From Ascidia mentula (taxonomy: Eukaryota; Chordata; Ascidiacea; Phlebobranchia; Ascidiidae), in NCBI GenBank assembly GCA_947561715.1, contig OX387200.1:9054501-9118500 (forward strand): a stretch of 64,000 nucleotides of DNA, given 5' to 3'. The notes below the pieces were generated by a model. It saw nothing but the letters and a program-made list of their open reading frames with translations. It made no database searches and was not told the origin of the DNA. How positions within the stretch are numbered: position 1 is the stretch's first letter; the number at the start of each line of letters is the position of its first letter. Made by a program: the position numbers and the translations under genes. Shown one piece after another: positions 217 through 56,200 of the stretch.

Positions 217-3200
217 GTTGAGTACAGTCCCCTGAACGTTCAAAACCCACCTCGTTTGAGGACAAATGTTCGAGTGACCGAAGAAATGCGTAAATCCAAG
301 TTACTTTATGTCCATCTGACAAACCTACAACCTGACAAGGAATACCACATAAGTGTTATGCCAGCAACCAGACTTGGTGCTTACGAAGGTGCATCTGGTG
401 GAGATGAGGGATTGATGGAAGAAAAATTAACATCAAAAATCTCGAGTGAAGAAAACTGTCGTCCTAGTGAGATTTTCTTAGGTTTTATTAAAGATATTTA
501 ACCTGGTTGTACTGTGTGAAAGCTTAATAGAATCAATATAGTTTTCAATATTTTTCAGTTTTTAATTACAAATAGTGATAAATTTTTGTAAATTTCTTTT
601 ACCATTATATATTTGAGAGTTTATTGATGTTTCCTTTCAAATATTCTTAAGGTAATACATTACACATGCTTTTTTAGCACAGAATTTCACAGATATGCTT
701 TAATCTGCAGGTGACAATGACTTGCAAGTGAAGGCCAAATTTATCCACAACTCATCAAACGATTTGCTGGTTACCTGGCAATACCACAAGGCGGTTCAAG
801 TTGCCAGATCCCGTCTGTCGCTGCTTGATTATGTGGGCAATCTTATCTTCGACCAAAATTTTCTTCCGCAAACAGAAAGGTCTTTCGTAATTCCTGACTT
901 AGGTGAGTTTAGTAACCAAATGAAACAACTGCATCAAGAAATTTAGTTAATGGAGATGTTTTTGCAGATCGCTTGGAATTTTACAAAGTGACACTGCAAG
1001 TTTATTCTACCTTCAATAAAACCTGCCTCAACGTTTCAACTGCTGTATTTCCTGGTGGTATGGAAGTTCTTTCAATGTTTCTGATCGATTATTATAATAT
1101 TTGCCATAATTGTGTAGTTTTCCACATTCTAATTCTAATGAATGCTGGCATATTTTAGTAACACTGACTTTCAAGATGTATTTATTTTTGTTGCATGATC
1201 GTTCAGGTTGTGTTGTTCACATATTGGTGGTAAAATTTGTCTCAATTACAAATTTTTTGGGGTTGAGGTTGGCCCACATGTTGACATTCCTGAAATGACT
1301 AATTGTGTTTAGCCAAACCTGCTTTTTCGACACCTACAATTGTTTCGTTAAATCGATCCTCGACAACGGAGATTTTTGTTCGTTGGGAGTTCAATCCCAA
1401 GTGGTATCCTGACCAACCGATTCACTACTTTGAGATTCAGTGCTTGTCAAAGTATGATGACGACCATTTTGTAAACAGGTAAATATGTTTAGAGTATAAA
1501 GATACTGGCCCATATTGCTATTAACACTGTCATGTTTAAAAGAAGACATTTCGGCAAAAACTTATGCCATCATCAGTTTGATACGATTTTTAAGCCCAAC
1601 ATTTTACCAGACAGTAATGATCAATAGAAAATTGAAAGGGCTGGATATAGTGTGTGTGTGCCAGTGGCTTCAAAGACATTTTGTTTTTTCCTAACTTTTT
1701 TTGTTGAGATTGTGTGTCAGAAAAGAGAGATGTGTTATGTGAATGGATCATGATGTACTTCTGTTATTATTATCTAACAATAATTTTAAATGGTCATTGA
1801 ACATTTTTTCCAACCATCTACGCCATATTTTTAGTACAACCACTGAAGCAAAATTATCTGGTTTGAAGCCTGGAACATTGTATGAGATATCAGTCAGAGC
1901 TGTGTTTCTTAAAAGCATTGCAGAGCGCGGTGCAACACCATTTTCAGCAGTTCGTGCAGATTTTACTAAGTGGCGTAAGTAAAGTTTGCAATTGGTATGG
2001 GTATCACATTATAAATGTAGCAAATATAGGTGTGTTTTGCCTATTTCGGTTCAACGAAATTGGTTATGTATTGACTAATCATGGCTTTATTGAAAAGTTT
2101 GAAAAACCAGTGGAAGAGATGCTTTGACAATACAGATTATGGGCGCTTAAAGTCATATAATGTAAAAAGAAACTTATTATCAGAAAGTATCCCTTTTGTG
2201 ACAAAATCCATGTGTTACTCTGTCAAAAAAACAACAACACAGATTGGGAAGTTTTCAAAAAGTTTGAAAATTTCTGTGTAAAGCTGATAAGATTGATCAA
2301 ACAGATGACTCCATATATGTTTCATACCAGAAAATTTGATCATTAGCCGGGTAGCTTGGTTCAAGTAATAATTCCTGGTATAGTGTTGATTAGTTTTTTG
2401 ATCAAGTTATTGAGAAGTTTTTTTTTTTGTGAAAACACAACAGTTAACGTCACATCTTATGCTTCCAGCTTTACACCAGGCACCCACACGACTTGTGGTC
2501 GTGGTTACTGAACAAAATATGGATATAAAGGTTGAAGATTATAATATCTTGAACACGGATCATCCCCGTTACTTGTTGAAGTACAATTGTGTGAAGGATA
2601 ATGTCACTGTCATGTCCAAAGACAGGTTACTGAAAAGTATGTCACAAAATCTTCTTTGCTTTGACTTTATTCTTGTTTGTTTTTACATGCTTGAAGATCT
2701 TTTAAAAGGTTTCATTGAAGTTTTAGGAAACCACTAGCCTTTTTTGATCATTGAAAGAAACAAAAAAAAATTTGGGAATAATTGATATCAGTGCCCAGTG
2801 TAATGTCTGTAAATTTGTTAAGGTACGACACTGCAGATAGATTGTGCTCCAGTTGGTACAAAATGCCACTTGCATGCTGCTAGGATTAACGGAGATGATA
2901 AAGAAGGAAAATTTAGAAGCAAGTCTGTTGAAATTGTGGAAAGAAGTGAAAAATGTGGTCCTTCTGGTAAGTGAAAATATCTCATACTTTACTTCCTCTT
3001 TATGGCACAATAAACACTAGTGTTTCAGTCACAAATAAATGTGTTTACCTTAAAATTGTTTTTTGTTTTTTTTATAAAAGTAGTGGTAACCTGGAAATGG
3101 ATAGCAAGCTGATGATTTTCCCAATGCAAAAATTTCCTAAAATTTTTATTTTTAATGCTGTAGAGTAAAAAGGTGATTTTCCTTGTTACTAAGTTGTTTG

Positions 3201-5198: not shown

Positions 5199-6702
5199 CG
5201 TCACGGACTCGCATCAAAACTTTTGTGTCGATAACCTCCTTCGTTGTGTAGTCCGGCCTTTAACTACCCCCGCTGCGGTGACGGAAGGGGATTCTTTTAT
5301 TACGTCACTATTGTCAGTGACGCATGTAAGTTTGTACATGTACTTTTGTGCGGCGGGGGCAGGAGAGCAGTATTGTCTCGTTCGCTTGAACAGTGTAATC
5401 ACGCCCAAAAGACGACGCTCCCATGACCTCAAGTTCTATCCTTCGCCGCGAATTTCGTTCCGCATCATCGTTATGAGTGCTTTCTTGTTGTTTTGTTTTT
5501 GAAAAAGTTCGGCACAAGCGTACATTTGTGTTTTTGCGCCTTTATCGACATCATGTTCATTACTACCTTCGCGGCGTGACAGACAGTGCTTTCAGTTTCC
5601 CTTCTAGTTATTCGTGTTCTCGCTGTTGTTGTTTAATATTTGCTCGATCACCTCCCGCGTAAATTGTACGTGTCTATGACCTCACAAATTAATATGACGA
5701 ACACGCGCGATGGCTCTTCCCGTTGCCAAACAACTGACAAAACTCCAATTTTCGAAACCTCACAGCGATCCACAGTTAACAGAAAACACGTGACCAAATT
5801 ACGTCATGCCCCGGTGATCGTTGTGTGTTCCTTACATTTCCGGTTCGGGGAAAGTTTCTACCTCAAATTTTCGGTACGCCATTGTTGCGTCTGCGTTATG
5901 GAAGTTACGTCATACACAAGAACGGGTGCATCGGATCGACTTGTATATAACGAACCGGACTTTTATTGGTGGACTTTGATTTCTATGTACAGCACTGCTA
6001 CGATCTCTATGTCCATGTGTGCTCGCTTGTTGTGTTCGTGTTTTTTTTCCGTCGCCTTTCTCAGGGATTCGTAGGGAATTCCAGCAAATTACATAAAAAA
6101 CGCATTGCTGACGTCAACGCCGCCGGCATCGCGTCAGCAACGGTAATAGTATGACGTCATAATATAAAGCGGTTGGCCACTGCCCTCGTCTGGTGTGTGT
6201 GTGCGTGTGTGTACGTTTGTTTGTATGTGTATGTATGTGTATGTATGAATGTTTGTGTGTGTTTGTATGTGCGTGTGTATGAGATGTGTGTGTCATTGGT
6301 GGATACCTCACCGCGAACTATCTTCATATTCGCGTGGCTCTACATGGCTCTTCGGACACTTTTTGAAACTCTACCTCCTATATTTCCGCGCGCCCGCCAT
6401 GTGCAAACGGGCGGCTGCATTAGACGCGAAGTGCTCGACCTCACCCCACCGAATACCACCAAAAATCCCCTACAAAGGGTTAAGTATACGTATAAAAGAC
6501 GACACAGTTTTGAGACTCGACCGCCAGGTGCTAGAATCACGTCCCACACACGTCGATTGTGACGTCATTGGTTTTTTCCCCGCCGAAGGCACGCCAACTG
6601 GTCGTGTCATTTTCGCTCCACCACTTTTATACCTCAACCTTTTTTATAAACTTGTTTTAAACCTGTTCGCTTATCGTGTTGTACCTTTTAAAATGAAATA
6701 AA
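5199..6702 (+). other. Probable long 3' UTR of the FN3 receptor gene, ending at a poly(A) signal
   Basis: No convincing coding exon lies between the TGA at 5196-5198 and an AATAAA at 6697-6702, which is followed by a T-rich downstream stretch. Short open frames here show no family resemblance. The segment contains four complete TGACGTCA palindromes or parts of them and a TG-rich microsatellite. Whether it is one continuous 3' UTR or includes a spacer cannot be told from sequence alone. Confidence 0.45.
6191..6300. repeat. TG/TATG-rich microsatellite
   Basis: About 110 bp of alternating GT, GTAT and GTTT units on the plus strand. It explains the low-complexity Cys/Val open frames in this interval, which I do not treat as genes. 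Confidence 0.85.
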
Positions 6703-53236: not shown

Positions 53237-56200
53237 TCAAATGTGCGTGGTAATCTTCGTGACGACTCTCTCGCGATCCGAGTCCATTCCGGATGGAACC
53301 CTCCGGTTTCGGTTTCTTTTCTGGAATTTACTGACTTCCTTTTCGAAGACTTCCCCGGACCTGAGAGCGGAAACAAGGTCGTCGAATTCACCTCTCTCAT
53401 CCTTTTTCCCTCCACCTTTCGCCGTTTTACGTTTCTGTTTTTCCTTTTCTCTCTGAAACGGATTAAAGAGTGAAATTATGAATTATGAAAGCTTGAAGTT
53501 GAAGAGGAAACGGGGGCAAACCTCGATTTCGGTTTTCTTCCTTCGTTCCTCGTCTTCTTTCTTCTTGCGCATCGCCGCGTTGTCCTTCTTCGCATTGTTG
53601 AACGTATCCATAAACGCGGTGAAGAGACCGAAGAATTGATCGGGCTGAAGTTTGTTCGGATCTTCGGCAAAAAGCCCGCACACTTTTCCATACTAAAAAG
53701 TATCAGAGGTGAGAAGTTGTACATGCGAAGGATGCGCACGGACTCTGTATGTGATCCATGTTCAGTTAAATAATTATCCCATTGTTGGTAAACAACAGGA
53801 AACAGATTTCAAACACCAGGGCTTCCGAAACTTATTGGTCGGGACCATTTCCAATTGACCAAACTTTTTGTAACCTTTTCTGTTCGGCAGTAATCAATTT
53901 TTCGACATATCAAGAAATATAAATTTACCCACAAGGTCGTGACCCCCAGTTTGGGGAAACACCGTCCTAAACCGACGAAGTCCATAAAAGTGCAGCGACT
54001 CAATCATACGCACCCTGATGACCAGAGCTCTCACACACACATAGGGTAAATTAACCATAAAACGCAAGGTTGCAAAGCTACAGTAAAACAAATTAAATTA
54101 TCTTTAAACATTCTACTTACTCCTTTCTTTGCATCAACTTGCAACTCCTCAAGTTCGGTAAATCCGAACGTTGCCACGGTAACGAAGTCAGTCATGACCG
54201 GGACAAACTGGTCCTGTGGATCGTTCTGACCCGCCAAAACCCGCGCTTTTTGCAAGTCAAGTTCCGTTGTCAAGCTTTTGAATCCTGCACGGAGCTGCGC
54301 TAATTCTTTGTCCACCTCTCCAAGGCTGCAATAACACAGACTGTTACGTCACAATTTGGCTTTGACATCCCGGTTACGTCACCTGACACCGGCCGCTACA
54401 TCCACGTGGCTCAGATCTTCAGGCAGGTCGAGAAGTTCGGGTGAGTTTTTCTCCAGCATTCCGACAAGGAAGTGCATGAGGGTGACGTTTCTACATAGTG
54501 GTAAGGAGTTGGTGATTAGAATAAAAAACTTTTATCACATGGAACCAATAAAAAGAAACATATACATAAAAGCTATTTAGCTTCTGAAATGATAGGGGAG
54601 AGGAATGTTCAAAATCGCTGAACTTTTTCAGCTTTTTCTGACAAATAGACAAAAGCAAAGTGGAGTCAATAATATGAATTGTGTAAGCTGAAGACAGATG
54701 GCCACTGTTTCGACCTAAAAGGTCTTATCAGTGCACAAATTGACGAAAGTTAAAAAACGTAATTTTTTTCCTTCGTGCATTTTTTTTTACGTTCAGTTCA
54801 CGCCTTAGCACATTTTAATATGAATTTGTTTAACATTAGCTCGTTGAGTTTTGCTCTACCTGTTGGCGCTAGACTTTGTATCAGCAATCTTGTTCAAGCT
54901 TTGTAGTTTAAATCCGTACGCGTTTCCCCTCTGCCCTTTGTTCATGTAGTTGCCAAACGCCAAAACCATCTCCAGAACCCTGCGCAGCTTCTTGCTACCT
55001 TCAACCTCCTTCACCGCTTTTAGAATAGCTAAATATGACGTCACAAATCACGTGAGGGAATATGCGCGAGTATTAAATGTTAAGAAGAACGTCATCACAC
55101 CTTCGACTTTCGGCTGAAGTTCGGATATCCGTTCGTGGAATTTCTTCTTGTAAAATAGGGCTTTTAGTTTTTGCTCGTAGTGGTGGATTCTGAGGAAGAC
55201 ATGAATATTTTATTACGAAGTCATATACAATTTTGCGCAGATATGGGCATACGGCTTATTGAAAAACATTAAAATTAAAACAAACGAAATTGTGTATAAG
55301 CTGCAGACAGATGGCCACTGTTTCGACCTAAAAGGTCTCATCAGTGCAGCTGGTGTGACTATCAGACGACTTTGCTGACCAAACGGCCAAGCAAAGACTT
55401 CCACAAACGAAAGTTTTTTCCATCACGTTTCGTGAAACACAACATATTTTGCCACATTTGAACCGGAATAAATTAATGAATCCCTAGTACTCACTGGCTC
55501 ATTTCGAAAAGAAATCGGTCAGCTTTGGCCATCTTCGAAATATCGTTTTTGTGTTCGTTTAACATGTCGATCTCCTCTTTAGAGGGTATGAACTTGATCA
55601 GCTGCTCCAACATGTCTTTTTGCAAGTCCTCGCTCTGTCACAAAATTTTACACAATAACGTTGAGATTAATTCGATTTACAACAGCCATAAATTGTGCAT
55701 TGGTAGGAAATTAGAGTTGGTTCCGTGATTCGCCTTTTACTGAAAATGTTTGTTTTTCTCGTGAATATGACTTTTTATATGATGATCGTAAGCACACGTA
55801 TACAAAAAAATTGCTGTTGAAATGAAAGTTTATCGAATGTCGAAGCAGCTTTAGTGGGAACGCGAACAGACGCTACGTGTCCAGGGAGCAAGATACGCCG
55901 CCAATTAAACTGACAAGAAATCAATTTCGAAACAAAAATACATTTTCGATGGAAGCGTTACGTTGTCGCAAGAAAGAAAGGGCAATGAGGTGATCGAATA
56001 TTACCTTATCACAACTAAGTACAGCCCTCTTAATGTCTTCGTCCGACAATTTGAGTTTGGAAAGTAGGATGGTGCAGTTTTGTGCACGACGTCCGTCGAT
56101 CACTGACAACTCCTTGACTTTCTTTACCGCAAGATCTTCCTGCGATCCGTACTTCTGCACGGGTTTAGATGGGATTCGTTCAGTAAACAGTGGTACAACA

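What the first reader, a model, noticed from the sequence alone, without database searches (positions are those of the whole stretch)
55299..55351. Intact type I hammerhead ribozyme in a DAAM intron
All invariant core nucleotides (CUGAUGA, GAAA, GUC) are present with three perfectly paired helices (7, 5 and 4 bp). The chance of this by accident is negligible. Located on the transcribed strand of an intron, it could cut the DAAM pre-mRNA or be the trace of a Penelope-like or retrozyme-type element. Hammerheads in such elements are known; an apparently functional copy reduced to about 60 bp inside an intron of a formin gene is unusual.
Basis: partly seen in the sequence, partly recalled or inferred. 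Interest (0 to 1): 0.88.

Follow-up and report, generated by a model that had tools for sequence, protein, structure and literature searches.

The report
Retrozyme fragment in a DAAM intron
The hammerhead ribozyme in this sea-squirt formin intron is a short fragment of a very common jumping RNA, and the way its copies are inserted points to a known class of jumping gene, Penelope-like elements, as the machine that moves it.

Summary
The motif is real: window 55299-55351 (minus strand) is a type I hammerhead with an intact core and helices of 7, 5 and 4 bp. It is not a lone 60-bp relic. It lies in a 113-bp insertion (55290-55402) with a 10-bp target-site duplication, one of 1,808 similar places (632 with the identical 35-nt core) in this 196-Mb genome. 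A damaged copy lies two introns further on. Full units are 284-285 bp, in tandem: an animal 'retrozyme'. The mitochondrial code says tunicate.

The surprise is how copies are inserted. They end at one of two points, about 15 or 44 nt past the cleavage site. Copies with two opposed halves have their tails outward, and in 20 of 21 resolved ones each point is used once; duplications are mostly 12-14 bp. Penelope-like elements here obey the same rule (7 of 7, ends about 39 nt apart). The one such protein studied in vitro starts copying at two sites and cuts both DNA strands. So Penelope-like machinery probably moves this retrozyme, until now a suggestion in the papers I saw.

Self-cleavage, circular RNA and any effect on DAAM are untested; Rfam scores stay below threshold.

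The parts
55290..55402 (-). retrozyme fragment, 113 bp: about 97 nt 5' of the predicted cleavage site plus 16 nt 3' of it (short, 'no-tail' 3' end)
   Evidence: alignment to the 285-bp unit and duplication-defined edges
55280..55289 (.). target-site duplication, first copy (ACAAACGAAA)
   Evidence: letters printed
55403..55412 (.). target-site duplication, second copy (ACAAACGAAA)
   Evidence: letters printed
55299..55351 (-). type I hammerhead: helix I 55351-55345/55305-55299, core CTGATGA 55344-55338, helix II 55337-55333/55329-55325, GAAA 55324-55321, helix III 55321-55318/55310-55307 with loop TGGCCAT 55317-55311, C17 at 55306, predicted cut between 55306 and 55305
   Evidence: read from the sequence; energy of this fold -16.0 kcal/mol
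54651..54734 (-). second, older retrozyme fragment (84 bp, about 90% identical to the unit, core CTGATAA, 3' end with tail); likely duplication ACAAATAGAC 54641-54650 / ACAAATTGAC 54735-54744, 9 of 10 letters
   Evidence: the imperfect duplication was seen by eye in the letters (one search reports 6 exact letters and treats it as unresolved)
55101..55191 (-). DAAM FH2 exon ([13 protein letters not shown]), approximate edges, between the two copies
54860..55018 (-). DAAM FH2 exon ([11 protein letters not shown]), approximate edges, between the two copies
55495..55639 (-). DAAM FH2 exon (SEDLQKD..FEMSQ), approximate edges, upstream of copy 1 in the gene

Best explanation
The window holds two short fragments of a non-autonomous animal retrozyme with a 284-285-nt unit. 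Proposed cycle: tandem genomic units are transcribed; the hammerhead cuts the RNA into 285-nt monomers, perhaps best as a dimer because the helix III loop is self-complementary; a host ligase closes them into circles. A Penelope-like element (PLE) protein with a GIY-YIG nuclease and a reverse transcriptase makes a staggered double cut that leaves about 12-nt 3' overhangs. Both 3' ends then prime DNA synthesis on retrozyme RNA, one starting about 15 nt and the other about 44 nt past the cleavage site. The two cDNAs run along the template for a variable distance and join head to head, or one of them alone is fixed, as in DAAM. Shown here: family, unit, duplications, two preferred 3' ends, outward polarity, the one-of-each rule, and the same rule in PLEs of this genome. 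Inferred: transcription, cleavage, circles, ligation, overhangs, the identity of the enzyme. In DAAM the fragment is most likely a passenger.
For: Family size. Tandem 285-bp units. Duplications: 32 of 42 retrozyme rows have 8 bp or more with a positive length; 26 of the 32 have 12-14 bp, while 992 flank pairs taken across insertions gave at most 11 bp, once, and 8 bp or more in 38. Two clusters of 3' ends, scattered 5' ends. Polarity: 9 of 9 close inverted neighbours among the 100 listed places, all on one contig, point tails out; of the 32 resolved insertions 21 are tail-out, 11 single-orientation, 0 tail-in; without the 7 loci fetched because they were inverted, 14 tail-out and 0 tail-in of 25. 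One end of each kind: 20 of 21; 0 of 200,000 label shuffles of those 20 reach 20, largest 18. PLEs: open frame with RT and GIY-YIG; duplications of 12-13 bp, ends near +60 and +99, 7 of 7 one of each. Published PLE behaviour: PMC11167929 (parts 1-3 of 4) and PMC3846280 (passages). Dimer fold -47.7 against 2 x -17.4 kcal/mol.
Against: No expression or cleavage data exist here. Rfam scores are below gathering. The best fold of the monomer and of the 285-nt circle is not the hammerhead fold. No PLE with the same hammerhead or tail was found in the PLE loci held, so the driver is unnamed. In the anole PLE, hammerhead mutants inserted as well as wild type in vitro, uncut RNA was the main substrate, and the template needed the start of the PLE reading frame (PMC11167929), which the retrozyme lacks. 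The 3'-end spacing differs (29 against about 39 nt). L001 breaks the one-of-each rule (ends 225 and 49), and L072 (duplication unresolved) would too. Seven of the 20 retrozyme cases and three of the 7 PLE cases come from loci chosen because they were inverted, though not for their ends. LINEs were not surveyed as a control.
Confidence: 0.78

Rival explanations
1. The retrozyme is moved by a LINE (L1-like target priming with twin priming), not by a PLE.
For: Twin priming also gives inverted insertions with duplications (recalled; PMC12016303 seen only in the search listing). LINEs were not surveyed here.
Against: By eye, no poly-A or simple-repeat 3' end at the junctions printed. Two preferred 3' ends used once each in head-to-head insertions match the PLE 'tail' and were measured in PLEs of the same genome.
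Confidence: 0.12
2. The 285-bp unit is a degenerate pseudo-LTR of a PLE rather than a separate retrozyme.
For: PLEs here carry hammerhead-like motifs and form the same tandem and inverted arrays.
Against: The unit repeats head to tail directly. No match to the protein of one PLE family lies within the 47 retrozyme loci held (about 1.5 kb either side for 40 of them, stretches of 0.6-1.04 kb for 7). The unit has only weak matches in the 32 PLE loci held, most of them in neighbouring retrozyme-like hammerheads. PLE motifs read here have a loopless palindromic helix III (by eye).
Confidence: 0.12
3. The DAAM copy has been kept for a host role: it cuts or regulates DAAM pre-mRNA, as suggested for a few conserved hammerheads of amniotes (mentioned in PMC7229834).
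For: Sense orientation, intact core and helices; a second copy in the same transcript could in principle pair with it (cofold -61.6 against -55.5 kcal/mol).
Against: 632 places share the intact 35-nt core, so intactness shows youth rather than selection. The second copy has a changed core G, and the predicted 1+2 pairing does not form the full hammerhead.
Confidence: 0.05
4. The motif is a chance match or cannot cleave.
For: Below Rfam gathering scores; monomer folds otherwise.
Against: 632 exact 35-nt copies against 0 for the reversed control exclude chance; cleavage itself is untested.
Confidence: 0.05

Closest known systems
Metazoan non-LTR retrozymes (Cervera and de la Pena 2020, PMC7229834, parts 1-4 of 6 read)
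   Same: Type I hammerhead inside short tandem repeats of 170-400 bp, GC under 50% (132 of 285 here), target-site duplications, co-existence with PLEs.
   Different: Here the 7-bp helix I next to the core has no internal loop, so the usual loop-loop contact is not evident. Of 20 resolved insertions in L001-L030, 13 are shorter than one unit. Paired 3' ends are described here; I saw no such description in the parts of that paper read.
Penelope-like elements (Poseidon of anole, PMC11167929, parts 1-3 of 4; Adineta Penelope, PMC3846280, passages)
   Same: Two alternative 3' ends giving an optional tail, head-to-head inverted copies, tandem arrays, AT-rich target sites, target-site duplications (8-10 bp in the rotifer passages against mostly 12-14 bp here).
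   Different: The 285-bp unit encodes no RT or GIY-YIG protein, and its tail is 29 nt against about 39 nt in the PLE family measured here.
Minimal PLE hammerheads that cleave as dimers (Cervera 2014 and Lunse 2017; cited in PMC7761336; neither paper held)
   Same: Self-complementary helix III suited to dimers.
   Different: PLE motifs here have no helix III loop (by eye); the retrozyme has a 4-bp helix with a 7-nt loop.
Conserved hammerheads of amniotes (mentioned in PMC7229834; details recalled)
   Same: A hammerhead in an intron.
   Different: Those are few and highly conserved; this is one of many mobile copies.

Membership tests
Type I hammerhead ribozyme | Invariant core with three helices, helix I open | tested here: met
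Type I hammerhead ribozyme | Rfam covariance score above gathering | tested here: not met
   (Hammerhead_3 20.6 of 48.5 bits); no positive control; none in six retrozyme and PLE loci either
Type I hammerhead ribozyme | Self-cleavage in magnesium | not testable with these tools
   none
Metazoan retrozyme | Type I hammerhead in tandem repeats of 170-400 bp | tested here: met
   units of 284-285 bp; the window itself holds only fragments
Metazoan retrozyme | Low GC (under 45-50%) | tested here: met
   132 of 285
Metazoan retrozyme | Non-coding | tested here: inconclusive
   frames of up to 88 aa with GTG or TTG starts and stop-free stretches of up to 94 codons, one stop per unit, are open in L021; two of the frames match no Pfam family at E up to 1
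Metazoan retrozyme | Dispersed by retrotransposition with target-site duplications | tested here: met
Metazoan retrozyme | Expressed as circular RNA | not testable with these tools
   insertions that span the cut site and exceed one unit fit a circle or an uncut multimer
Penelope-like element (autonomous) | ORF with RT and GIY-YIG | tested here: not met
   no match to one PLE family's protein in the retrozyme loci held; such ORFs are present in separate PLEs
PLE-type insertion (works like) | Two alternative 3' ends, one at each outer end of a head-to-head insertion | tested here: met
   20 of 21 resolved retrozyme and 7 of 7 resolved PLE insertions

The most novel reading that the evidence does not exclude
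Animal retrozymes are passengers of Penelope-like machinery, and in each head-to-head PLE-type event both template start sites are used exactly once, one per DNA end, as if a dimeric enzyme held the two sites of one circular RNA. The genome would then record the enzyme's architecture.
Probability: 0.5. Interest if true: 0.72.

Novelty: new member of a known kind. Interest (0 to 1): 0.55.

Why it matters
Which autonomous element moves animal retrozymes has been open: a 2020 review says the repeats show no conserved motif that would reveal it (PMC7761336, passages), and PLEs are named as strong candidates only (PMC7229834). The insertion pattern here is specific evidence for PLEs and can be tested with one purified protein. 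It also shows that a retrozyme can leave many fragments shorter than one unit (13 of 20 resolved insertions in L001-L030), so a lone intronic hammerhead need not have a host role.

Tried and rejected
Reading the two window copies as the ends of one 613-bp retrozyme unit: rejected, because FH2 exons lie between them and the unit is 285 bp. Rfam as proof: no hammerhead at gathering. Viral contigs: no exact match of a 32-nt pattern. Covariation: the pattern for a changed helix II gave 27 places, by eye mostly single changes, so no covariance claim is made and no model was built. A PLE with the same hammerhead: not found among the PLE loci held. 'Non-coding' could not be settled.

Rows dropped. 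One search has 42 retrozyme rows. 32 with a duplication of 8 bp or more were used; 9 unresolved (L005, L010, L012, L013 twice, L014 second, L072 twice, WIN2) and 1 spurious row (WIN2, negative length) were dropped; the first L072 row is inverted and would not fit the rule. The first L006 row is counted though its duplication is only 8 bp. The wider flanks give chance matches of 8 bp or more in 38 of 992 cross pairs. PLE rows: 7 used; L058 dropped as a likely duplicate of L049 (same duplication letters); L083 and L085 (6 and 7 bp) dropped though their ends agree; rows cut by locus ends dropped. The length list typed into holds one 8 too many; numbers here are. One search's 28 duplications are 28 of the 32.

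Full report
WHAT IS THERE. A pattern made from it occurs twice in the window and in none of 100 shuffles. The second copy, 54693-54731, has a core G changed to A (CTGATAA). Three exons of a formin lie around the copies. Joined, they match FH2 (153.9 bits), and the best solved structures are DAAM1 (181.7 bits, next formin 79.9). Both copies are in introns, in the sense orientation, with two exons between them, so the second copy is two introns further on.

THE GENOME. The mitochondrial COX1 match has five TGA codons inside and fits known COX1 better when AGA/AGG are read as glycine: best 829.3 bits under table 13 against 796.4 under table 5. That code is the ascidian one (recalled), so the host is a tunicate. 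The species is not identified.

THE FAMILY. A 66-base query gave 45 matches from 40 scored of 989 candidates; 40 are identical over all 66 bases. The 32-nt inner motif has 957 + 851 = 1,808 places at up to 3 mismatches, 0 for the reversed control. The intact 35-nt core has 326 + 306 = 632 exact places, again 0 for the control. At C1:17581142-17584207 (L021) units repeat every 285 bp, two hammerheads in minus and four in plus orientation, the whole enclosed by a 12-bp duplication. This fits the animal retrozymes of Cervera and de la Pena (PMC7229834, parts 1-4 of 6): type I hammerheads in tandem repeats of about 170-400 bp, low GC, up to many thousands of copies. One caveat: the unit is not free of open frames (up to 88 aa with GTG/TTG starts), though two of them match no Pfam family.

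THE WINDOW COPY. The unit aligns over 55286-55404 at 96%. The flanks carry the 10-bp duplication ACAAACGAAA, which sets the insertion at 55290-55402, 113 bp. It starts about 97 nt before the cleavage site and stops 16 nt after it. So the template spanned the cleavage site, uncut or religated.

INSERTION RULES. One search, repeated, gives 42 rows; 32 have a duplication of 8 bp or more (and a positive length), of which 15 are 12 bp and 26 are 12-14 bp. Flank pairs taken across insertions: 992 pairs, at most 11 bp (once), 8 bp or more in 38; in an earlier pass with narrower flanks, 662 pairs, at most 10 bp (twice). 3' ends (47 rows): 17 at 15-23 nt past the cut, 16 at 39-59, 1 at -4, and 13 that run into a further unit; 39 5' ends scatter over the unit, with 4 (the window copy among them) at 99-100 nt before the cut. 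Among the 100 places listed, all on contig C1, close inverted neighbours are 9 of 9 minus-then-plus, tails outward. Of the 32 resolved insertions, 21 are tail-out, 11 single-orientation and 0 tail-in; leaving out the 7 loci fetched because they were inverted, 14, 11 and 0 of 25. Of the 21, 20 have one 3' end near +15 (mean 15.1) and the other near +44 (mean 44.2); L001 has an end at 225. Shuffling the labels of the 20 never gave 20 in 200,000 trials, the largest being 18. Single copies have either end; the window's first copy has the short end and its second the long end.

PENELOPE-LIKE ELEMENTS IN THE SAME GENOME. There are 121 GIY-YIG matches from 150 scored of 382 candidates. One family has an 886-aa open frame with RVT_1 and GIY-YIG and lies in an array of 2,870-bp units. 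In one search its 7 resolved insertions have duplications of 12 bp (six) or 13 bp (one) and outer ends near +60 and +99 from the hammerhead-like cut site, one of each in 7 of 7; three of these loci were fetched because they were inverted. Two rows with shorter duplications agree. By eye, the inverted pairs within 5 kb among the 43 matches are 13 minus-then-plus and 0 the other way. The array on C67 also has one end of each kind (L043, L047, by eye). No match to this family's protein lies in the retrozyme loci held.

WHY THIS POINTS TO PLE MACHINERY. A purified anole PLE protein starts reverse transcription at two adjacent internal sites, which its authors tie to the optional 30-40-bp tail of PLE copies; it cuts and extends both strands and prefers AT-rich ATT sites (PMC11167929, parts 1-3 of 4). 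In rotifers the tail is optionally present on one of the inverted pLTRs, and inverted copies are mostly head to head (PMC3846280, passages). The retrozyme shows the same: two ends 29 nt apart, one per outer end, tails outward, AT-rich targets (28 of the 32 duplications, typed into: 76% AT against 60% for the window; 20 of 28 contain ATT or AAT, against 40% of random window 12-mers). Against: in that work hammerhead mutants inserted normally, uncut RNA was the main substrate, and the start of the PLE reading frame was needed in the template; the retrozyme has no such frame, so how its RNA would be recognised is unknown. The papers seen name PLEs as candidates (PMC7229834; PMC7761336 and PMC11722881, passages). 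I saw no earlier report of this pattern on retrozymes in the listings of searches or in the passages read; the library holds only openly licensed papers. Hammerheads are in print for a tunicate: 9 type I loci in Didemnum (PMC8704543, one passage).

RIBOZYME ACTIVITY. Not shown. The hammerhead fold of the 53-mer is -16.0 kcal/mol against -17.4 for the best fold, but two molecules fold together into a double hammerhead at -47.7. The helix III loop TGGCCAT contains the palindrome TGGCCA, and several divergent copies have other palindromic loops (by eye). Cleavage as a dimer, reported for amphibian retrozymes (PMC7229834) and proposed for PLE hammerheads (PMC7761336), is therefore the likelier mode. 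The 285-nt circle is predicted to be more stable than 100 of 100 shuffles (z -3.1, 65% paired), with the hammerhead not formed in its best fold. Rfam gives no hammerhead at gathering.

VERDICT. Observation confirmed; interpretation partly supported. The object is a new member of a known kind, but its family carries a specific and testable signature of the machinery that moves it.

Noticed in passing
L032, L034, L036, L041-L047, L050-L055, L056, L061, L062: Many PLE loci carry a minimal hammerhead-like motif whose helix III is a loopless palindrome (ACGT, AGCT or ATTAAT) with a short matching helix I; as monomers these could hardly fold (read by eye; no such motif printed for L031, and none of this kind seen in L040).
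   Followed up: partly
L050:694 (plus), L060 about 2940-3009 (minus), and places: Divergent retrozyme-like hammerheads, some with a longer helix III and palindromic loops such as GTGTACAC.
   Followed up: partly
L072:1409-1889: An inverted element with ends at unit positions 281 and 7 and no clear duplication, unlike the other copies; perhaps decayed or nested.
   Followed up: no
L062 about 5300-6690 and about 60 (minus strand): A tandem array of about 138-bp units beside a PLE array, with another such unit on its other side (positions converted from the reverse strand).
   Followed up: no
L060:571-645 (minus): A tRNA match (50.1 bits, gathering 29) in a locus that also holds a PLE and a divergent retrozyme-like copy.
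   Followed up: no
G000:C79 (19,461 bp): The contig with mitochondrial COX1 looks long for an ascidian mitochondrial genome (recalled). Its gene content was not examined.
   Followed up: no
L049 and L058: Two PLE insertions at different places on C70 with the same 12-bp duplication letters, so probably one insertion copied by a segmental duplication.
   Followed up: no
L021:162-1601: The 285-bp unit is a multiple of three (95 codons) and keeps one frame open on each strand (94 and 87 codons), without ATG at the listed starts; no Pfam match for two of these frames.
   Followed up: partly
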